A stretch of 64,000 nucleotides of DNA, from positions 46,869-110,868 of IMG/VR virus record IMGVR_UViG_3300032092_000009; one strand, given 5' to 3'. Position numbers and translations under genes: made by a program. Shown piece by piece: positions 4,658-61,224 of the stretch. The notes under the pieces were generated by a model. The model did not search any database. It worked only from the letters and a program-made list of their open reading frames with translations, and was not told the origin of the DNA. The stretch comes from a virus. The first letter of the stretch is position 1, and the number at the start of each line of letters is the position of its first letter.

Positions 4658-5245
4658 ATGAGCTACACAAGAGAACAAATCGAAGCGGCTATGAAAGCCA
4701 AAGGTTATAAGTACTTTGAGAATGGAGATTTTAACGTAAACATTATTGGTGTACGTAACTCTTCTACTGGTACTAAAGTAACTAACGTATTTGACGATCA
4801 CTTAACTCTTTCTTACAAAGAAGGTGGTGAGTGGAAATTTAAAATCTGGCCTGCTACTACAGATCCAGGAACTAAGGGTGTTAAAGAATTCCATAACGCT
4901 GCAGGTGTTGCACGTTTGGTACCTGGTCAATACTCAGGTTCACACCATGTAGGATTGCACCAAGGTAAGTACGAAGCCCTTAAGCAAAAGGCTAACGTTA
5001 AAGTTTACCGTGATGCTAACAAAGACATGAACTATGACGAGTCCAAGATACAAGAAGGCATCTTCGGTATTAATATTCATAAAGCTGGTGCAGACTCTAC
5101 CTACGTTGAAAACTGGAGCGAAGGTTGCCAAGTGTTCAAGAAGTCTGCTGACTTTGATGCATTCATGGTTATCTGTAAGAAGGCTGCGGCATTGGGTGGT
5201 AACTCTTTCACTTATACTCTTATTGAATCTAAAGATATCAAGTAA
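4658..5245 (+). CDS. Candidate peptidoglycan enzyme with YkuD-like H...SxGC motif
   Basis: 195 residues without a signal peptide, so it would need a holin to reach the wall. The core has GINIH (His141) followed 13 residues later by W-S-E-G-C (Ser154, Cys157), matching the His...S-x-G-C active-site arrangement of YkuD-type L,D-transpeptidases, in which Cys is the nucleophile. A short SGSHHVGLH segment lies at ~92-100. Codon use is highly biased, suggesting strong expression. Its position after a holin-like gene suggests the main endolysin or a wall-modifying partner. The family match is by motif only; another cysteine peptidase or amidase fold is possible. Confidence 0.5.
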   Translation: MSYTREQIEAAMKAKGYKYFENGDFNVNIIGVRNSSTGTKVTNVFDDHLTLSYKEGGEWKFKIWPATTDPGTKGVKEFHNAAGVARLVPGQYSGSHHVGLHQGKYEALKQKANVKVYRDANKDMNYDESKIQEGIFGINIHKAGADSTYVENWSEGCQVFKKSADFDAFMVICKKAAALGGNSFTYTLIESKDIK

Positions 5246-5716
5246 ATGAAAGGACTTCTAGTAAGTCTTTTCCTAATTCTTTCTATCCCCTGTTCTTCTC
5301 AAATCAATGTGATGAAGGCAGGGGATGGTTGGGATTTAAAGGTAGACTCGGCCTTAGCATTAATTGCTCAAACTGATGTCAACGCTTATACTAGAGTAAT
5401 AGATGTCTGCCAAGTAATAGACTTCTGGATTAGCCCCTATTCCTCTAATACAATCTCCCAAGATGGTGGAACTATATTTATCGCTACAGGAGACATAAAA
5501 ACGAATTCACTCAATAACCTAGCTTGTGTTATTGTACATGAAAGTCTTCACTTATACTACTTGTTACATCCAGTAGAACAGTCACAGGACGAAGAAGAAC
5601 TTAAGTGTTATATCTACGAGTTAGACTTTATAAAAAAACTACCAACCCCAGAGCCTTGGTTACAGGCAAATGCAATTGAACAATTACATAAATTAACTAA
5701 AACAAAAACAAAATGA
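5246..5716 (+). CDS. Secreted HExxH metalloprotease-like protein
   Basis: 156 residues. A Sec signal peptide (about 1-19, ending CSSQ) is followed by a small domain with HESLH at 98-102, the zinc-binding and catalytic motif of gluzincin-type peptidases. Acidic residues (DEEEL) about 20 residues later could supply the third ligand. The start ATG directly follows the previous stop, and its TGA overlaps the next ATG (ATGA), so the genes are translationally coupled. Export implies a periplasmic or extracellular target, unlike virion proteins. Function is inferred from the motif. Confidence 0.6.
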   Translation: MKGLLVSLFLILSIPCSSQINVMKAGDGWDLKVDSALALIAQTDVNAYTRVIDVCQVIDFWISPYSSNTISQDGGTIFIATGDIKTNSLNNLACVIVHESLHLYYLLHPVEQSQDEEELKCYIYELDFIKKLPTPEPWLQANAIEQLHKLTKTKTK

Positions 5717-7611
5717 ATAAACTATTTAAAGTAATCATCGGGGTGTTGACATTGTTGGTTGGCAATGTATCAGCACAAAGTTCTGCTACCTCTCCAGGTA
5801 CAGGTCATTGGGTTGTAATCGACTCAGGTTATCAAGTAGCTACAAACACTGTAGGACAGACTGTAGCTCCTCTACACTTCTACAATACCTCTACTTCTGA
5901 AAAGATCACAGGTATGCAGTTCCGTGTATTCTACGATAAGACAGCTTTCACAGCAGTTGTTCCTTCTCTTAAGATTTCTTCTACTGATCAATACTTGCAG
6001 TATGTAGATAGTAACACACAAGGTTTCTTAACTGTTACATTGGCTTACACTGGATCTAGCTCAACATTTAACTACTCTAATGGAGCTACATTTGATCTTA
6101 CCTTCACACACGCAAGCGCAGCTGTATGGAACACATTGGATTCTATTAAGACTCTTAAGGTATCAGGTGTTAAATCATTCGCTAACAAAGCCGCTACTAA
6201 CTGGGGTAACGATACTACTTTAGTAGTTTACTCTTATGGTGGTCGCTTCAACCAGAAAGTATTAAGATTTGCTGCTAAGTTTAAAAACGTAACAGGTTCT
6301 GACGCTAAGAACTTGTGGGTGTCTTTGGAAAAGAAAGCTCCTTCAGGATCTTGGACTCAAGTAGAAGCTAAAGCAACTAACTCTAGTGGTGTTGTTGTAT
6401 TCCGTAAATTCTTGGATACTACTTACTGGGATGTACGTATGGTTGTTAAGGGAGATACTATGACCCCTGGTAACGTATTCTCTACTGCAGATGCACAGAA
6501 AATTAACCAGTCTATTCTAGGTCAATATGTTGCTTCAGGATTTGACTACTACACTATGGACGTAAACGGAACTGATGGAACTATTTCTATTGCTGATGTT
6601 TACTCTGTATACGGACGTTTGGCAGGTAGATTCTCTGCATGGCCTAATTCTAAGAAGGATGTAATGTTCTTTACAGTTGCTGAGTACAACTCAATTAATG
6701 GATCTGCTACTAACTTAACTTCTACTTACTCTACTATTAATAACTTTAACTACACAATTGACGGTAGAGATTCTATCACTTACTACGTAGCTGTTAAAGG
6801 TGATGCTAACTCTACAGGATTTAAGATGGCTCGTTTAACACCTATTAAGATTGTTAACCCAGCTAATGCTAAGCGTTACATCATTGACGAGACTGTAGAA
6901 TACGACTTCCCTGCAGAAACTATTGAGATCAACATGCCTAAAGTAACTGTAGACGAAGGTAACTTGGTTAACGTACCAGTTAAAGTACTGACTAACGGAA
7001 AGAACTTAGGTGCACTACAATTAGACTTGCGTTATGACACTGCTTACTTAGAGTTTAAGAAAGTAGAAAACACTGAGAAGATGATGAAGTGGACTTCTTA
7101 CTTGAACCCTTCTAATGGAATCATTTCTTGGGGAGCTGCTGACTTGACTAACGAGAACATGCTTAATGACGGAGAGCAAGTATTCACTCTTCAATTTATC
7201 GCTAAGAAGCCACAAGACTCTTGGGCTACTGCAGCTTTGTGGACAGGTGCTAAATACGTAGGAGACAAAAACTCTAAAGACATGAACATTACCCCTGCTA
7301 TGGGAGTAATTGAAGTACGTAGAATTAACAAGGGAGTTGTTTCACTTAATGACTTGAACTCTATTATTACTTTTCCTAACCCTACAGAAGGTCCAGTACA
7401 AATACAATTCAAGATCAAAGAAGACAGCGAAGTAGACGTAGCTATCTCTGATGAGGTGGGAAGACGTGTACAAACGATTTTAAGAGAAAGAATGCCTGCA
7501 GGTAAGTACAAGTATAATACAAACCTAGATCGTCTCCCTAATGGCTTCTATGTACTTTCTGTAACAACTCAAAAAGAAATCTTACACTCCAAAATAATCG
7601 TACAAAAATGA
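5713..7611 (+). CDS. T9SS-exported cohesin/dockerin-like surface protein
   Basis: 632 residues. A signal peptide (1-21, VSA/QSS cleavage) is followed by a cohesin-like beta domain (~35-160), a prealbumin-like beta segment (~180-245), a dockerin-like pair (~247-300) with calcium loop DVNGTDGTISIAD (D283-D295, one residue longer than canonical), a linker domain shared with the lectin gene, and a second cohesin-like domain (~405-535). The last ~78 residues (from ~555) match the type IX secretion sorting domain (type A): FPNP near its start, a (V/I)xISDxxG strand, LPxGxYxLxV, and a basic end. The predicted route is Sec to the periplasm, then host T9SS to the surface. It overlaps its neighbours by ATGA junctions. 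Domain calls are from pattern recognition; ligand and purpose are unknown. Confidence 0.75.
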   Translation: MNKLFKVIIGVLTLLVGNVSAQSSATSPGTGHWVVIDSGYQVATNTVGQTVAPLHFYNTSTSEKITGMQFRVFYDKTAFTAVVPSLKISSTDQYLQYVDSNTQGFLTVTLAYTGSSSTFNYSNGATFDLTFTHASAAVWNTLDSIKTLKVSGVKSFANKAATNWGNDTTLVVYSYGGRFNQKVLRFAAKFKNVTGSDAKNLWVSLEKKAPSGSWTQVEAKATNSSGVVVFRKFLDTTYWDVRMVVKGDTMTPGNVFSTADAQKINQSILGQYVASGFDYYTMDVNGTDGTISIADVYSVYGRLAGRFSAWPNSKKDVMFFTVAEYNSINGSATNLTSTYSTINNFNYTIDGRDSITYYVAVKGDANSTGFKMARLTPIKIVNPANAKRYIIDETVEYDFPAETIEINMPKVTVDEGNLVNVPVKVLTNGKNLGALQLDLRYDTAYLEFKKVENTEKMMKWTSYLNPSNGIISWGAADLTNENMLNDGEQVFTLQFIAKKPQDSWATAALWTGAKYVGDKNSKDMNITPAMGVIEVRRINKGVVSLNDLNSIITFPNPTEGPVQIQFKIKEDSEVDVAISDEVGRRVQTILRERMPAGKYKYNTNLDRLPNGFYVLSVTTQKEILHSKIIVQK

Positions 7612-7959: not shown

Positions 7960-8283
7960 ATGTCAGAAGAACAAGAAGAAAGCGTAATGTCAGCTACTAA
8001 GAAAGCTATCATTGGCGCAGTCACCACTGCTGTAACTGCAGGAGGTGCATGGTTTGCCACTCACTTTGGTGGCGGTGAAGAACCTAAAGAAGAAGCTAAA
8101 ACAGAACAAGCACCCGCTGCTGCTCCTGTGATTAACTTGAATCTAGAGAACAACAACACTAACCAGCAGAAACAATCTTCAGGTGGAACTACTACTATCA
8201 TCAAAGAAAGAACAGTAGAAAAACCTGCAGCTCAATCTGCTCCTGCAACCAAACCACAAGCTGATGAGGAAGATCCTTGGTAA
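7960..8283 (+). CDS. Small membrane-anchored protein with Pro/Ala/Asn-rich tail
   Basis: 107 residues counted from ATG 7960 (MSEEQEE), 4 nt after the preceding stop; an upstream in-frame ATG at 7915 would overlap the previous gene by 41 nt. There is one hydrophobic segment at ~16-35 (AIIGAVTTAVTAGGAWFATHF), then a disordered tail rich in E, K, P, A, N and Q ending EEDPW. The 3' end overlaps the CsgG-like gene by 20 nt. No family recognised. The shape (one span plus flexible periplasmic or cytoplasmic tail) would fit a linker between membranes or a lysis accessory. Confidence 0.6.
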   Translation: MSEEQEESVMSATKKAIIGAVTTAVTAGGAWFATHFGGGEEPKEEAKTEQAPAAAPVINLNLENNNTNQQKQSSGGTTTIIKERTVEKPAAQSAPATKPQADEEDPW

Positions 8284-8971
8284 ATGGTTTAACAAGTTCA
8301 TGACTCTTGTAGTCTTGACCTTAGCAGGTTGTGGTTCTATGAAGACTACTACCGAAGAAGATAAAGTGGAGGTTAAAGACATCTCCACTGTATCTAATTA
8401 TAGTGATTCTATTAAAAAAACAGTACAAGTGGTAAGCGTAGATATGACCAAGGTACTTGCTCTTTATCCTGCTCTTCAGGAAAAGAACGTAGGTCTTGGA
8501 TTTGCAGAATCTGTTTTGGATTATTTGGATGAAACAAACAGATTTATATTTACGGAAGAAAAATCAGAGATCAAAGAAAGAATGGTCACTCAATTCAAAG
8601 CATCAAAGAAAGGCGTATTCGATGAGCCTATTGATGGCAAAGGTAAGATTAAGCCTGCTCACTACTTTGTGTATGTTACTGTGGCTGATTTTGCTGTTGA
8701 TGAAGACGAGCAAGTTGATGGCCTTAAGTCAAAAGTTGTTGTCACTACCTTCATTCGTTTACAAGTTCGCTTTGTGGACGCTAAAACAGGTCAGATCTAT
8801 ATTGGATCTGGCGAAGGAGAGTCGACTAAGACTGGTGAATCATTCTTAAAATCTTTAGATGATATGAAGTTCTCTCAAAGCACAGTAGGTAAAGCTACTC
8901 GTAAATCTTTGGAGACAGCTTGTACTAATGTGATTCAAAATCTCATTAAGTCAGGTGTATTTAAAAACTAA
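8264..8971 (+). CDS. CsgG-family outer-membrane lipoprotein
   Basis: 235 residues with a lipoprotein signal peptide (basic start, LVVLTLAGC lipobox, Cys23). The mature part follows the CsgG/HfaB pattern: VGLGFAESVLDYL...RFIFTEE...ERM (strand, helix, and the 'rF-v-er' segment), then AHYFVYVTVADF, then RLQVRFVDAKTGQIY...GEG, then a C-terminal helix with an A(T/C)xxxIQNLI pattern. CsgG proteins form oligomeric outer-membrane channels for curli-like subunits. Here the gene lies between secreted-protein genes, so it may form or assist an export pore. Pore-lining segments cannot be verified by eye; the family assignment is moderately strong. Confidence 0.65.
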   Translation: MRKILGKWFNKFMTLVVLTLAGCGSMKTTTEEDKVEVKDISTVSNYSDSIKKTVQVVSVDMTKVLALYPALQEKNVGLGFAESVLDYLDETNRFIFTEEKSEIKERMVTQFKASKKGVFDEPIDGKGKIKPAHYFVYVTVADFAVDEDEQVDGLKSKVVVTTFIRLQVRFVDAKTGQIYIGSGEGESTKTGESFLKSLDDMKFSQSTVGKATRKSLETACTNVIQNLIKSGVFKN

Positions 8972-10430
8972 AATACTAATACTATTTATGATAGCTCTGT
9001 CTCTTCGGGGGCAGAGCTTTATTTATTCGTATACAGATCCGTGTACACAGGAGTTAAAGTTTATTAACGCAGACATGTCTAGTCCTATAGTGATTGCTTA
9101 CTACGGACAGGTTAAAACTTTCTCCTACACAGAGTTACAAGATGGTACGTTTGATAATTGGATAAATAGTGTATATTTGAAGTATCAAAGTACATCACCC
9201 TGTCAAGGAGTTGGAGTAACAACTACTACAACTACCACAACAAATACTACCCTAAACATTGTAAGCAATGTTATGAACCTAGGGGCTATTTCAAATGTTG
9301 GTAGTGTAAACGTAGACGTAGGCTCAAGTACCTCTTCAGGAACAAACATAGGAACAACAAAAACCAATAATAACAATGACAATCGAACTAGTTCTCGGAA
9401 TCGTACTAGCAGTAGCTCTAGTCGTTCTAATTCTTCTGGCAGCTCGTCAGGAGAAAATGGAAAATCAAATGATGGAGGAAACTCATCAGAAAATCAAAGT
9501 GGGTCTTCATCCAACTCCAACTCCAGTGGAGAAGGCAGCGGAGAAGGTAATGGAGGAAGCAGTAGCTCCAGCTCCAGTTCCAGTAGTAGTGGAGGAAACT
9601 CCAGTGGTAGTGGAACTAGTGGAAGTAGTAGTGGAAGCTCCCAAGGTGGAGGCGGAAGTGGTGGTAAAACCGAAGAAAAAACGGAAGTACAAACCGAGGA
9701 ACCCACAGAACAAAAAGTAGAAGAAACTAAAACTGAGACTCAAAAATCTCAGTCTACTGGTACTGCAAAAGCTGCAGGAAAAGCTAAAGCCGAAGTTGCT
9801 AAGCCTGCAATCTTAGTAACTGGTGATTTAGTTGGTATTCAGACTAAGTCTGATGGAGCACAAGATGCAAGAGGTACTGCCTCTTTTACTAGAGTAAAGG
9901 GAGACGGTACTTCTTCTCTTGGGTTTTCAGCTGACTACATGGTTAACGCTAGAATAGGAAATATCTCTTGCGTACGTTCCTGGATAGGAGCAAACAAAAA
10001 AGGACACAAACATATCAGTGTTGTATCTGATGGACTTAGCATAATGCCTAAGTCAATGTCAAACACTCTTCTATTTGTAAGAGTTAATTCAGTTAAAAAC
10101 TTTACAGCGCTCTACGGAGCAGCGGGAACCTACGGTAAACTATTTGGAGAAGAAATGATTTCTACCATTGCCATAGGAGGTTTTATGTACAAAGGTAAAC
10201 TTACTAAGAGTATAGACGCTACAGTTATTATGGCTGGTATCTATTCTCCTTATTCTAAGTATTACACAGAGTCTATATTTGAAGCTAAGCCTATTGTTAT
10301 TCCTTTCTTCAACTTTACATATAGAATGACCAAGACTTTTGGTTTAGGTATTACTGGAGGAGGAACATACGTAGCAGGACAGGATATATTGAACTTTCAA
10401 TTATTAATGGGAGCTAAGTTATTAATATGA
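8955..10430 (+). CDS. Exported protein: Ser/Gly-rich linker plus outer-membrane-like C-terminal domain
   Basis: 491 residues from GTG 8955, which gives a full signal peptide (K-x-K, hydrophobic core, LRGQS); the ATG at 8988 would remove its basic start. An N-terminal domain (~21-85) is followed by a Thr/Asn/Val stretch, a low-complexity tract of S, G, N, then E, T, K (~140-255), and a C-terminal ~215-residue beta-rich domain with alternating aromatic strands (YMVNARIGNI, FFNFTYRM, LGITGGGTYVAG) ending FQLLMGAKLLI, typical of outer-membrane beta barrels. The gene overlaps the CsgG-like gene by 17 nt and the lectin gene by 4 nt. The low-complexity tract coincides with a second frame at 9376-9720. 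Confidence 0.65.
   Translation: MYLKTKILILFMIALSLRGQSFIYSYTDPCTQELKFINADMSSPIVIAYYGQVKTFSYTELQDGTFDNWINSVYLKYQSTSPCQGVGVTTTTTTTTNTTLNIVSNVMNLGAISNVGSVNVDVGSSTSSGTNIGTTKTNNNNDNRTSSRNRTSSSSSRSNSSGSSSGENGKSNDGGNSSENQSGSSSNSNSSGEGSGEGNGGSSSSSSSSSSSGGNSSGSGTSGSSSGSSQGGGGSGGKTEEKTEVQTEEPTEQKVEETKTETQKSQSTGTAKAAGKAKAEVAKPAILVTGDLVGIQTKSDGAQDARGTASFTRVKGDGTSSLGFSADYMVNARIGNISCVRSWIGANKKGHKHISVVSDGLSIMPKSMSNTLLFVRVNSVKNFTALYGAAGTYGKLFGEEMISTIAIGGFMYKGKLTKSIDATVIMAGIYSPYSKYYTESIFEAKPIVIPFFNFTYRMTKTFGLGITGGGTYVAGQDILNFQLLMGAKLLI
9376..9720 (+). CDS. Candidate overprinted membrane protein inside the Ser/Gly tract
   Basis: A 114-codon ATG frame, shifted +1 relative to the 491-residue gene and wholly inside it. 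It reads as a coherent protein: an N-terminal transmembrane helix (IELVLGIVLAVALVVLILLAA), a short charged part, then a Pro/Val/Glu/Ala-rich stalk and a basic end (VKPKKKRKYKPRNPQNKK). Such stalk-and-basic-tail endings are seen in single-span phage membrane proteins. Its limits (host residues ~141-255) coincide with the host frame's low-complexity region, as expected if one frame was overprinted on the other. It could still be a compositional by-product of GGA/AGT/TCC repeats. Confidence 0.45.
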   Translation: MTIELVLGIVLAVALVVLILLAARQEKMENQMMEETHQKIKVGLHPTPTPVEKAAEKVMEEAVAPAPVPVVVEETPVVVELVEVVVEAPKVEAEVVVKPKKKRKYKPRNPQNKK

Positions 10431-11410
10431 GGTGGTTAGTTATTCTATTCTTTATTGTAAGCCCTCTAAGTGCACAATTTACTTATTCTGGATACTTGTA
10501 TAATGCAAATGGATCTGGGGCCAACAACGTAGCTATAAAACTGTATAGAAGAACTAACTCAACTATTACAGGCTTTACTAATCAGCAGAACTACAACGGG
10601 CACTCTTATTACCGTTCTACAGGAACTGCATTTTGGACTACAGCCAAGACTAACTGCTCTAATATGGGAGGGCACTTAGTAACTATTACAACTTCAGGAG
10701 AGCAAAGTTTTCTATATAATCTCTGGCCTTCTGGATGGATAGGACTAACAGATGAAGTAACAGAAGGTACTTGGAGATGGGTTACAGGGGAAAGTTATTC
10801 TTATTCTAACTGGAACTCTGGAGAACCTAATAATGCAGGTAACGAAGATTATGTTCAATTTGTATCTAATGGTAGGTGGAATGACTTACCTAATAACTAC
10901 GCACTTCCTTATGTACTAGAGTTTGAGTATTTAGTAACTACTTCTTCTTGGACACTCTACAAGACTATATATACTAACTCTTCGGGTTACTATTCTATTT
11001 CTGAGACTTACGATCCTTCTAAGGAATACTACATTGAGATAGATGCTCCTACCAGAATTCAATCTTATACAACTTCAGACATTCAAGGAGTATCTAATAT
11101 TATTCTCGGAAGGAGTGTAAGGAATGGTTTGTCTTTTCATATGTTTGATGTTAATGAAGACGGAGTAATTTCTATAGCAGATAAGTATTATGTAGCTGCG
11201 AGGAAAGCTGGTTTATTCTCTAGATGGAGAACAGCTCCTGATGTAAGGATCTTTACTACTGCTCAATACAATTCAATTAAAGCAGCAACAACAAACGTAA
11301 GAGCAACCTATCCTGGAGTTACTACTCATACTACAACTACCTTAACCTCAGGGGGAAGTTTAAACTTATATATAATAGCTCCTGGCTATGCTGGAGCAGT
11401 AACCTACTAA
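10427..11410 (+). CDS. Secreted C-type lectin with dockerin-like module
   Basis: 327 residues: signal peptide (1-16, PLSAQ), a short beta segment, a C-type lectin domain (~58-166), a linker, and a dockerin-like module (~215-275). The lectin domain has WIGL, the EPN motif (133-135) that in animal and bacterial C-type lectins binds calcium and mannose/GlcNAc-type sugars, and WND (151-153). Most canonical disulfide cysteines are absent. The dockerin-like loop DVNEDGVISIAD (D241-D252) has the canonical calcium spacing. The following ~40 residues (DVxxFTxAxYNSI...ATN) are shared with the 632-residue T9SS protein. No T9SS sorting domain is present, so surface retention would need a partner. Confidence 0.75.
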   Translation: MRWLVILFFIVSPLSAQFTYSGYLYNANGSGANNVAIKLYRRTNSTITGFTNQQNYNGHSYYRSTGTAFWTTAKTNCSNMGGHLVTITTSGEQSFLYNLWPSGWIGLTDEVTEGTWRWVTGESYSYSNWNSGEPNNAGNEDYVQFVSNGRWNDLPNNYALPYVLEFEYLVTTSSWTLYKTIYTNSSGYYSISETYDPSKEYYIEIDAPTRIQSYTTSDIQGVSNIILGRSVRNGLSFHMFDVNEDGVISIADKYYVAARKAGLFSRWRTAPDVRIFTTAQYNSIKAATTNVRATYPGVTTHTTTTLTSGGSLNLYIIAPGYAGAVTY

Positions 11411-11412
11411 CT

Positions 11413-11859
11413 ATGAAAAAACTATTTATACTTTGCTTTCTAGTCACTATGATGACTTCTCTGAGTGCTCAATGCTATAAAGTTGACACTGTAACATCAA
11501 TTGCTTCTGTAACAGAAATAGGAGGAAGACCTATAATCTTTGGAGCACAAACAACTTTAGAAGAGATTGCAGCCTCAAAGTACCAACTATGTAATGAGGG
11601 CAGTCCTATTTCAGGAACAATCAAATCCATTGCTATGCCTGAAGAACTCTTAAATATCGTAGGGTTACAGTTTCTTAAGAGAGACTATATTGTAATCACT
11701 GAGATAAATCTAAATGGAGTAACTGTTCTTGGAGAGGCTAAAAAGACTGTCTATGTTAATGCTATGTTTGTTTCTGTAGAAGGTATTCCTCATAACAGAA
11801 AAGCTTATTCTAAGGCATTGGAGAAGTCTTTCAAGAATGGATTTGAGAATTTGAAATAG
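11413..11859 (+). CDS. Small secreted protein of unknown function
   Basis: 148 residues with a signal peptide (1-19, SLSAQ cleavage). The mature protein is a mixed alpha/beta domain with two cysteines near each end of its first third (CYKV and QLC), a central strand pair (DYIVITEINLNGVTV) and a C-terminal helix (YSKALEKSFKNGFENL). It is the last gene of the exported cassette, 2 nt after the lectin stop, and ends in TAG. No family recognised; CsgE- or CsgF-like accessory function is only a guess from its company. Confidence 0.6.
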   Translation: MKKLFILCFLVTMMTSLSAQCYKVDTVTSIASVTEIGGRPIIFGAQTTLEEIAASKYQLCNEGSPISGTIKSIAMPEELLNIVGLQFLKRDYIVITEINLNGVTVLGEAKKTVYVNAMFVSVEGIPHNRKAYSKALEKSFKNGFENLK

Positions 11860-59906: not shown

Positions 59907-60245
59907 ATGGAAACTCATGACATTCTCAGAGAGCAATCAAAGAAACTTCGTCAAATCGAAAGTCAACTTTGTTGCATCAATGCTAGCGTAACTGCGGAAG
60001 CAGGTATGAATGGTAGCAAAGTTATTTCAGGTACTTCTCCTGTTACAGGAAGCTTTCAGTACTTTGTAGTAAACGCATCTGCTGTAGTTACAGCAATCTT
60101 AGATCAAAGCGGTAATAGTCTTATGACTTCACTAAGTTTATCTGGGATTACTTTAGCTCCAACAATGAAGATTAGCGTACCTAAAGGTACAACTATCTCT
60201 TCTATCACACTTTCTTCTGGTTCAGTAATCGCTTACAACGCTTAA
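59907..60245 (+). CDS. Small fibre-like or decoration protein
   Basis: 112 residues. An N-terminal helix (LREQSKKLRQIESQ) with CC at ~22-23 is followed by a beta-rich domain of Val/Ser/Thr strands (FQYFVVNASAVVTAIL...TISSITLSSGSVIAYNA). This helix plus beta-strand cap is like short phage decoration or fibre proteins. Its last base overlaps the first of the holin start codon (TAATG). Confidence 0.5.
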   Translation: METHDILREQSKKLRQIESQLCCINASVTAEAGMNGSKVISGTSPVTGSFQYFVVNASAVVTAILDQSGNSLMTSLSLSGITLAPTMKISVPKGTTISSITLSSGSVIAYNA

Positions 60246-60667
60246 TGAAAACCCTTCTAATAGCTTTCACTACAGTATGTGCCTTCTTAGGCACATATTT
60301 TTTAAAGTTGACTGCAGATAACTTCGAGCAGTTCTTAGCTATAGTGTCTGTTGTTAGTTTAGATGGTTTCTTTGGTGTGTGGGCTGGAACAAAGAAAGAA
60401 GGTTTTCAAACTCGTAAGGCACTAAAAGTTCTTAAGACTTTGGTTGGTTGGGTAGTAATACTATCCGTTGTTCTCCTAGTAGAGAAAGGATTTGATGGTA
60501 CATTTTGGCTAAGTGAGACTATTTGTGCTCCCTTTATTATCTTCCAACTGATTAGTGCTCTTAAGAATGCACATACAGTAGGAATCATAGATAACAGTGT
60601 ACTATCCCAAGTTCTAGAAAAAATAGACAGACATAAATTCAACCACGATGAAAAACCTCTCGATTAA
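60245..60667 (+). CDS. Phage holin
   Basis: 140 residues with four hydrophobic segments (~1-22, ~30-44, ~62-80, ~92-105), and a charged C-terminus (DRHKFNHDEKPLD). The segment DGFFGVWAGTKKEGFQTRKALK between spans 2 and 3 matches the D-x-x-x-G-x-x-x-(A/G)xK pattern of the toxin secretion/phage lysis holin family (phage_holin_4). It would form the inner-membrane lesion. It lies directly before the spanin-like pair, overlapping it by 20 nt, which strengthens a lysis role. Confidence 0.75.
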   Translation: MKTLLIAFTTVCAFLGTYFLKLTADNFEQFLAIVSVVSLDGFFGVWAGTKKEGFQTRKALKVLKTLVGWVVILSVVLLVEKGFDGTFWLSETICAPFIIFQLISALKNAHTVGIIDNSVLSQVLEKIDRHKFNHDEKPLD

Positions 60668-60965
60668 ACTTAACTTTATCTTTTTCTTTGTTATTGTATA
60701 CCTGCTTTACAGGTACGAGTATGTACAAGAGCAGGACACTAACCAAGTAATATCTTTTATAGATTCTATAGATAAAGCCAACGATACTTACTTCGAAAAG
60801 ATAGACTCTCTAGAGCACATCAAGCACGAAGAGTATCACAACTATGAAAAAATCACCTTAAAGTATGACACAATTCAGATTGCTATTGACACTATGCCTG
60901 ATATTGACGGCACAAAGTATCTACTCACAATCTCTAGACAGCTTACCGCTAAAGGAGTTGAATAA
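60648..60965 (+). CDS. Candidate inner-membrane spanin
   Basis: 105 residues with an N-terminal signal-anchor (LNFIFFFVIVYLLYRY), then an extended charged periplasmic helix (~27-75). An N-in anchor plus coiled periplasmic domain, directly downstream of a holin, is the layout of Rz-type inner-membrane spanins. The next gene begins inside this one in another frame (101-nt overlap), a common feature of spanin pairs. Sequence similarity to known spanins cannot be judged by eye because the family is highly divergent. Confidence 0.5.
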   Translation: MKNLSIKLNFIFFFVIVYLLYRYEYVQEQDTNQVISFIDSIDKANDTYFEKIDSLEHIKHEEYHNYEKITLKYDTIQIAIDTMPDIDGTKYLLTISRQLTAKGVE

Positions 60966-61224
60966 TGAGTTCTTAAAAGGAATTCAAGCACGTGAAAGAG
61001 TAGTTAGTTTAAAGAAGATTGTCAAAGCAGACAGTCTTCAACTACATTATTATAAAGATTCTATAGTTCCCAACTACCAAAAGGCTTTAGATACAGCCAA
61101 GGTAGAGATAGTTCGCTTAGATACTAAAGTTAGATCTCAAGCAGAAACTATAAAAACATTGAAGAATGTTTTGAAAGGCGGATTAATTGCTATAGCTTTG
61201 TTAACCATAGGGTTAATACTTTAA
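60865..61224 (+). CDS. Candidate spanin partner, signal peptide plus C-terminal span
   Basis: 119 residues. A signal peptide (1-22, SIYSQ) is followed by a coiled-coil domain (~30-95, with VEIVRLDTKVRSQAETIKTL) and a C-terminal hydrophobic segment (GGLIAIALLTIGLIL). Outer-membrane spanins are usually lipoproteins, but the nearest cysteine (Cys11) is preceded by Leu, so no lipobox is seen; the C-terminal span could anchor it instead, as in single-gene spanins. The first 101 nt are nested in the preceding gene. The export signal and overlap favour a lysis role. Confidence 0.5.
   Translation: MTQFRLLLTLCLILTAQSIYSQSLDSLPLKELNNEFLKGIQARERVVSLKKIVKADSLQLHYYKDSIVPNYQKALDTAKVEIVRLDTKVRSQAETIKTLKNVLKGGLIAIALLTIGLIL

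What the first reader, a model, noticed from the sequence alone, without database searches (positions are those of the whole stretch)
9376..9720. Overprinted reading frame: membrane-stalk protein inside a Ser/Gly-rich tract
A +1 frame of 114 codons starts with ATG, gives a clean transmembrane helix, a Pro/Val/Glu stalk and a basic KPKKKRKYKPRN tail. Its start and stop coincide with the edges of the low-complexity region of the host frame (residues ~141-255). One explanation is that the host frame is low-complexity because it must accommodate the other protein, or the reverse. Genuine dual coding of this length is rare.
Basis: partly seen in the sequence, partly recalled or inferred. Interest (0 to 1): 0.75.

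Follow-up and report, generated by a model that had tools for sequence, protein, structure and literature searches.

The report
Membrane protein gene nested inside another
In a family of environmental viruses of Bacteroidota-type bacteria, a gene for a small membrane protein lies wholly inside another gene in a shifted reading frame, while relatives carry the same small gene on its own, so the overlap looks like real double coding that the gene can enter or leave.

Summary
The ORF 9376-9720 is real, and the evidence favours genuine dual coding. Its length and matching edges prove nothing: +1 stops need a host codon with middle T, and all 2000 host-synonymous shuffles stayed open. The evidence is elsewhere.

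(1) Relatives: 24 of 29 loci found with the small protein carry it nested at the same place; 5 of 29 (three distinct versions) carry it as a free-standing gene with the same TM helix and KPKKKRKYKPRN tail. The nested peptide scores 83.6 bits against a profile of the free proteins only; the shuffle maximum is 41.3. Over 12 tail codons, free and nested differ by 4-9 bases and 0 residues.
(2) Host-synonymous divergence is reduced over the TM, second-helix and tail blocks, but not the P/V/E stalk.
(3) A Bacteroidota-type promoter lies inside the host gene, 204 nt upstream: 21 of 21 unique host sequences with the ORF, 0 of 37 without it.

Hosts lacking the long ORF keep a Ser/Gly/Asn tract, so the tract does not exist for the ORF. 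At least one free copy (L027) probably escaped from the nest. Expression and function are untested.

The parts
8955..10430 (+). Host gene: signal peptide, small N-terminal domain, disordered Ser/Gly/Asn + Lys/Glu/Thr linker, C-terminal outer-membrane beta-barrel-like domain (GTG start as listed)
   Evidence: low-confidence model with about 11 strands from residue 285, Foldseek top hits are OM barrels; no Pfam or PHROG match
9376..9720 (+). Nested gene in +1 frame, 114 aa single-pass membrane protein
9379..9498 (+). TM helix continuing as a long helix (residues 2-41 of the small protein)
   Evidence: AlphaFold2 model, block means 91, 97, 92, 79 pLDDT over residues 1-40; host-synonymous change 0.034-0.072 over 9393-9482
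9523..9561 (+). Second helix with conserved AAExVMxEA (residues 50-62)
   Evidence: host-synonymous change 0.054-0.097 over 9513-9581
9562..9666 (+). P/V/E stalk: mainly the Ser/Gly host frame read +1, no sign of selection in the small frame
9667..9717 (+). Basic tail KPKKKRKYKPRNPQNKK
   Evidence: KPKKKRKYK invariant in the 12-row alignment; free versus nested 0 residue differences in 12 codons
9150..9179 (+). Internal promoter motif: -33 TTTGA, -7 TATATTTG; predicted start of transcription about 9184
   Evidence: 21 of 21 unique long-ORF hosts, 0 of 37 others; invariance; consensus from PMC6847099
9150..9222 (+). Block of host gene with almost no third-position change among nested relatives
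   Evidence: 3 of 25 third positions variable versus 0.68 in flanks, 0 of 20000 shuffles as invariant
9356..9375 (+). A-rich translation leader of the nested gene (A at -3, -6, -13; 70% A)
   Evidence: determinants from PMC6847099
8264..8971 (+). Lipoprotein gene overlapping the host gene start, partner in the adhesin-like module
4658..5245 (+). Endolysin (PHROG lysis match) that borders the slot in which the small gene is found in relatives

Best explanation
A genuine same-strand overlapping gene pair. The host gene (signal peptide, disordered linker, predicted outer-membrane barrel) carries in the +1 frame of its linker a complete gene for a small single-pass inner-membrane protein: TM helix, second helix, flexible stalk, strongly basic tail. 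SHOWN by sequence: homologous free-standing genes exist; the +1 sequence matches them beyond what the host protein forces; host-synonymous change is reduced over TM, second helix and tail; an invariant Bacteroidota-type promoter motif lies 204 nt upstream inside the host gene. INFERRED: that promoter makes a separate mRNA and the A-rich leader starts translation at 9376. Constraint is divided: TM, helix and tail serve the small protein, the stalk serves only the host. INFERRED topology N-out/C-in, since K/R follow the TM in all forms, so the basic tail would face the cytoplasm. INFERRED and weak (about 0.3): it acts with the neighbouring holin-endolysin module, for example as a lysis regulator or membrane tether. 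The gene moves between nested and free states: free L027 sits inside the nested clade and probably escaped.
For: 29 loci with the protein, 24 nested and 5 free. Score to free-only profile 83.6 bits versus shuffle mean 12.9, sd 7.0, max 41.3; L017 76.0 versus max 40.4. Host-synonymous differences 1862/13021 = 0.143 in the ORF versus 11573/48636 = 0.238 in flanks, 153 pairs of 18 unique sequences. Tail: 0 residue and 4-9 base differences. Promoter 21/21 versus 0/37; 8 of 11 TATATTTG in the window lie just upstream of genes, 11 found versus 3.6 expected; free L025 and L028 have TATATTTG 24-26 nt upstream. Of 45 records with the terminase region (44 loci plus window), the 22 of the window's clade with a readable slot each hold one small gene: 15 nested, 1 free plus, 6 free minus (the minus-strand ones are only weakly similar).
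Against: No expression data. The overlap-aware ratio over the whole ORF is only 0.74 (0.54-1.01), and 1.45 (0.75-2.96) in the TM block by NN/NS; the supporting SN/SS of 0.32 (0.13-0.66) rests on few sites. Serine codons show no reduction (0.179 versus 0.169). The stalk shows none, and alignment there is unsure. A Ser-rich tract read +1 is hydrophobic anyway. Long-ORF hosts are close relatives, so promoter presence is one shared event; only its synonymous invariance is independent evidence. Bare TAHHTTTG occurs in 15 of 37 other hosts. No family match for the small protein above cut-off.
Confidence: 0.85

Rival explanations
1. By-product: a Ser/Gly/Asn tract is automatically open and hydrophobic in the +1 frame, and the ORF is not translated.
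For: 2000 of 2000 shuffles stay open; hosts without the gene also have hydrophobic +1 runs, e.g. 82 aa in L102.
Against: Free-standing homologues, 42 bits above the best shuffle, tail with only synonymous changes, promoter and reduced host-synonymous change.
Confidence: 0.06
2. The conservation is caused by a DNA or RNA element in the host gene (promoter, recombination site, packaging signal), not by a protein.
For: A strongly invariant DNA block does exist at 9150-9222.
Against: That block lies outside the ORF; inside it, tail codons differ between free and nested genes only synonymously in the small frame, so free genes keep protein, not DNA.
Confidence: 0.04
3. The +1 reading is reached by a programmed frameshift from the host gene, giving a host N-terminus fused to the TM and tail.
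For: The +1 frame is open from 9352, eight codons before the ATG.
Against: Free genes begin with their own ATG and two versions have a promoter motif 24-26 nt upstream; the nested ATG has an A-rich leader; no slippery site was systematically sought.
Confidence: 0.04
4. Origin, in-situ birth: the small gene arose by overprinting in the host linker and all free copies are escapees.
For: The basic tail is the +1 reading of a Lys/Glu/Thr segment also present, in similar form, in hosts without the gene such as L099; L027 lies in the nested terminase clade, has a V-rich stalk (0.50) and a leader 17/24 identical to nested L017 versus at most 14/24 for 37 other genes.
Against: L025 and L028 carry it in another neighbourhood (L025 terminase 29% identical; none found for L028) with little V in the stalk; a minus-strand free relative in close phages may be homologous. 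The host tree root is not resolved.
Confidence: 0.35
5. Origin, capture: an older free small gene of the lysis module became embedded in the host linker, and L027 later left again.
For: In L025, L028 and L151-L153 a small TM/basic-tail gene follows holin, endolysin, 93-aa and 146-aa genes; DNA homology with L027 stops at the small stop codon.
Against: Requires the captured DNA to read as Ser/Gly linker in the host frame; L027's other frames are full of stops.
Confidence: 0.4

Closest known systems
Phage lambda Rz/Rz1 embedded two-component spanins (PMC6139136, passages read)
   Same: A small membrane-linked protein wholly inside another gene, +1 frame, same strand, in a dsDNA phage.
   Different: The small protein has no cysteine, so no lipoprotein signal; its host gene is a predicted OM barrel, not an i-spanin. 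The survey reports no spanin family mixing embedded with separated members; here one family has both. A spanin-like overlapping pair sits elsewhere in the window (60648-61224).
phiX174 lysis gene E inside gene D (recalled, from no call except titles in the reference list seen)
   Same: Embedded, shifted frame, N-terminal TM helix, basic C-terminal part.
   Different: No sequence similarity tested or claimed; this phage has an endolysin and holin-like genes, so a single-gene lysis protein is not needed.
Viral overprinted genes in general (PMC8227390, listing abstract and passages)
   Same: Protein with unusual composition in an alternative frame of a disordered region.
   Different: Free-standing relatives exist, so the gene moves between overlapping and independent states.
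Flavobacterium phage immuto adhesin-like module (MW353176.1)
   Same: Lectin, cohesin and host-gene homologue (29% identity) in a similar set.
   Different: Its host homologue has +1 stops and no nested gene of this kind.

Membership tests
Same-strand embedded overlapping genes | Complete ORF within another ORF, different frame | tested here: met
Same-strand embedded overlapping genes | Purifying selection on both frames | tested here: inconclusive
   Reduced host-synonymous change and zero residue change in the tail support it; overlap-aware NN/NS 0.74 (0.54-1.01) for the small frame is not significant, host NN/SN 0.56 (0.39-0.77) is
Same-strand embedded overlapping genes | Both proteins expressed | not testable with these tools
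   Only promoter and leader predicted
Two-component spanin (Rz/Rz1) | One partner an OM lipoprotein with lipobox cysteine | tested here: not met
   No cysteine in the small protein, none just after the host signal peptide (read)
Two-component spanin (Rz/Rz1) | Spanin family match | tested here: not met
   PHROG search: small protein 0 families, host 0 families at 0.1
De novo gene born by overprinting | Outgroup hosts that never had the ORF | tested here: inconclusive
   Hosts without it exist but the root is unresolved
De novo gene born by overprinting | No older homologue elsewhere | tested here: inconclusive
   Free homologues exist; age relative to nested copies unclear except L027
Crassvirales / crAss-like phages (the virus itself) | Core gene similarity | tested here: inconclusive
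   Endolysin 50% to Rudgehvirus jaberico, terminase 29% to Cellulophaga phi4:1 and 38.5% to Leptolyngbya phage Lbo-JY46, major capsid 21% to cr130_1

The most novel reading that the evidence does not exclude
A gene born by overprinting in the disordered linker of an adhesin-module gene, its basic tail being the +1 reading of the host's Lys/Glu/Thr segment, acquired its own internal promoter and later escaped more than once to independent loci, including into another phage lineage: a natural series from nested to free gene.
Probability: 0.35. Interest if true: 0.82.

Novelty: new variant of a known kind. Interest (0 to 1): 0.64.

Why it matters
Nested genes are missed by most gene callers and usually rest on one weak argument, an open frame. 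Here the same protein exists nested and free, so what overlap does to a protein (longer, V-rich stalk; conserved ends) can be read directly, and the direction of gene movement between the two states becomes testable. It also shows how linkers of low complexity can hold a second gene at almost no cost, and warns that open +1 frames over such linkers are by themselves meaningless.

Tried and rejected
Rejected as evidence: ORF length and edges (2000 of 2000 shuffles open). Rejected: spanin identity (no cysteine, no family match, a spanin-like pair elsewhere). Database look-ups that gave nothing: no match for the small protein in 50,697 phage records or in genome contigs, nor for the minus-strand relative in the phage records. 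The profile search in viral contigs gave only loci already known; L027 and L028 as queries gave no further free homologue. Fold search of the host model says only outer-membrane barrel, at mean pLDDT 42. TATATTTG at 10274 was noted; the residues over it vary among nested relatives (ESLFEAK in L007, the contig of L037), so it was not taken as a promoter. A third shuffle test (L068) failed with a script error and was not repeated. Papers: no description of this overlap was found in searches of the held open-access library; that is the whole basis for calling it unreported.

Rows dropped: the 153-pair tests use 18 unique nested sequences; L001-L022 are mostly the same contigs as L031-L050, and L023, L024, L067, L068 (different TM segment) were left out of them. 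The promoter count uses 58 unique hosts with the YYGQ anchor; 14 loci without it are not counted. The short-group test used 20 unique of 24 listed, the no-motif group 11 of 15. Terminase tree: 34 of 44 loci plus the window.

Full report
What is there. The ORF at 9376-9720 is exactly as described: ATG, 114 codons, TAG, +1 to the host ORF 8955-10430. The window is part of a 110,868-base virus record. Its nearest named relatives by core proteins are crAss-like and Cellulophaga/Flavobacterium phages and a Leptolyngbya phage, all distant.

What is not evidence. A +1 stop codon can only form where a host codon has T in the middle. The Ser/Gly/Asn/Thr/Lys/Glu tract has none, so the ORF must begin and end where the tract does. 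Shuffling synonymous host codons kept at least 110 open codons in 2000 of 2000 cases, for the window and for L017. Ser-rich codons read +1 also give V, A and L, so a hydrophobic run is expected.

Relatives. A search with the small protein found 29 viral loci. In 24 it is nested in the host gene; in 5 it is free-standing, with no long ORF in the other frames. The five are three versions: L025/L026, L027, L028/L029. Searching with the host C-terminal domain gave 80 loci. Those without the long nested ORF still have a Ser/Gly/Asn-rich linker, so the tract does not owe its existence to the nested gene. Some of these (L054-L097, and L101) carry a short +1 ORF ending in EEIHQKIKAG plus a few residues; host-synonymous change falls to 0.086-0.103 there against roughly 0.3 nearby, and NN/NS is 0.33 (0.14-0.63) at the motif, 0.91 (0.75-1.10) after its stop and 0.95 (0.79-1.12) in the group without the motif.

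Does the +1 frame code? Scored against a profile built only from the three free proteins, the window's nested peptide reaches 83.6 bits; 2000 shuffles that keep the host protein give mean 12.9, sd 7.0, maximum 41.3. L017 gives 76.0 against a maximum of 40.4. Over the 12 codons of the tail, free L025, L027 and L028 differ from six nested genes by 4-9 bases and by no residue. Among 18 unique nested sequences (153 pairs) host-synonymous differences are 0.143 in the ORF and 0.238 in the flanks. The fall is at the TM (0.034-0.072), the second helix (0.054-0.097) and the tail (about 0.09); the stalk is not reduced. By residue, T and K fall most, S not at all. The overlap-aware ratio is weaker: NN/NS 0.74 (0.54-1.01) overall, 0.35 (0.09-0.97) in the tail, 1.45 (0.75-2.96) in the TM block; SN/SS 0.32 (0.13-0.66) on few sites. 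The homologues and the tail therefore carry more weight than this test.

How it could be expressed. A second zone almost without synonymous change lies at 9150-9222: 3 of 25 third positions vary, against 0.68 in the flanks, and 0 of 20000 shuffles had so invariant a window. It holds TTTGA and TATATTTG in the manner of the Bacteroidota promoter (-33 TTTG, -7 TANNTTTG; PMC6847099, passages; PMC9723704, passages). All 21 unique hosts with the long ORF have the full motif, none of 37 others does, though 15 of 37 have a bare TAHHTTTG somewhere in the stretch. TATATTTG occurs 11 times in the window (3.6 expected), 8 of them just upstream of genes. Two free versions have it 24-26 nt before their ATG. 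The nested ATG has A at -3, -6 and -13, positions that help initiation in F. johnsoniae according to the same paper. That this promoter and leader work is inferred.

What the protein looks like. AlphaFold2 gives a helix over residues 2-41, a helix over 50-62 and disorder in most of the rest (mean pLDDT 66.1). In every form Lys/Arg follow the TM and none precede it, which by the positive-inside rule suggests N-out/C-in, with the basic tail in the cytoplasm. No Pfam family reached its cut-off and no PHROG family matched. The host is a low-confidence outer-membrane barrel with a long disordered linker.

Where the gene sits in relatives. The terminase region of 44 loci plus the window shows the slot between endolysin and a conserved minus-strand gene. 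Of 45: 15 nested, 1 free on the plus strand (L158, the L027 contig), 6 with a minus-strand gene of like architecture (L151, L152, L153, L164, L182, L185), 11 with the host module but no long nested ORF, 7 with none of these seen, 5 cut off. The minus-strand proteins are only weakly similar: E 6e-4 to 4e-3 in four and not below 0.01 in two; profile comparison 95% over the TM stretch, so they may be analogues. L025's phage has a terminase only 29% identical, yet the same holin, endolysin, 93-aa and 146-aa neighbours as L151-L153. That neighbourhood is the only basis for suggesting a role near lysis.

Which came first? L158/L027 lies inside the nested clade of the terminase tree with starred support, its stalk is V-rich like nested ones (0.50), and its 24-nt leader matches nested L017 at 17 positions, against at most 14 for 37 other gene leaders. 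It probably left the nest when the host module was lost. For L025/L028 the direction is open. The tail reads from a host Lys/Glu/Thr segment that hosts without the gene share in similar form (L099), which favours birth in place; the shared free neighbourhood favours capture. The host tree does not settle it, because the outgroup branch is far too long.

Comparison. It works like other embedded phage genes such as lambda Rz1 in Rz, but is not a spanin: no cysteine, no family match. The spanin survey (PMC6139136, passages) says no spanin family mixes embedded with separated members; this family does have both states. I found no description of this pair in searches.

Verdict.

Noticed in passing
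window 60648-60965 and 60865-61224: Overlapping pair (TM plus coiled-coil protein, then a signal-peptide protein with C-terminal TM) after a holin-like 140-aa gene at 60245: looks like the phage's spanin pair, similar in layout to pairs after the endolysin in crAss-like phages (L197-L199).
   Followed up: partly
window 5713-7611, 8264-11859: Adhesin-like module: cohesin plus Por secretion tail, lipoprotein, host gene, C-type lectin; similar set in Flavobacterium phage immuto (L196). A type IX sorting tail in a phage gene is unusual.
   Followed up: partly
L054, L059-L061, L064, L065, L070-L097, L101: Short +1 ORF (TM-like run plus EEIHQKIKAG, then stop) in hosts of other phages, with reduced host-synonymous change at the motif.
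   Followed up: partly
window 3204, 3777, 12505(-), 12666, 28052, 37234, 46117, 53749: TATATTTG just upstream of genes, in some with TTGAC about 22 nt before it: probable promoters of this phage.
   Followed up: partly
L025 3558-4235: GIY-YIG-like homing endonuclease gene between endolysin and the 92-aa gene of the lysis module (name recalled from its sequence, not from a search).
   Followed up: no
L179 1036-2806: The cohesin-like gene is split into pieces in this relative.
   Followed up: no
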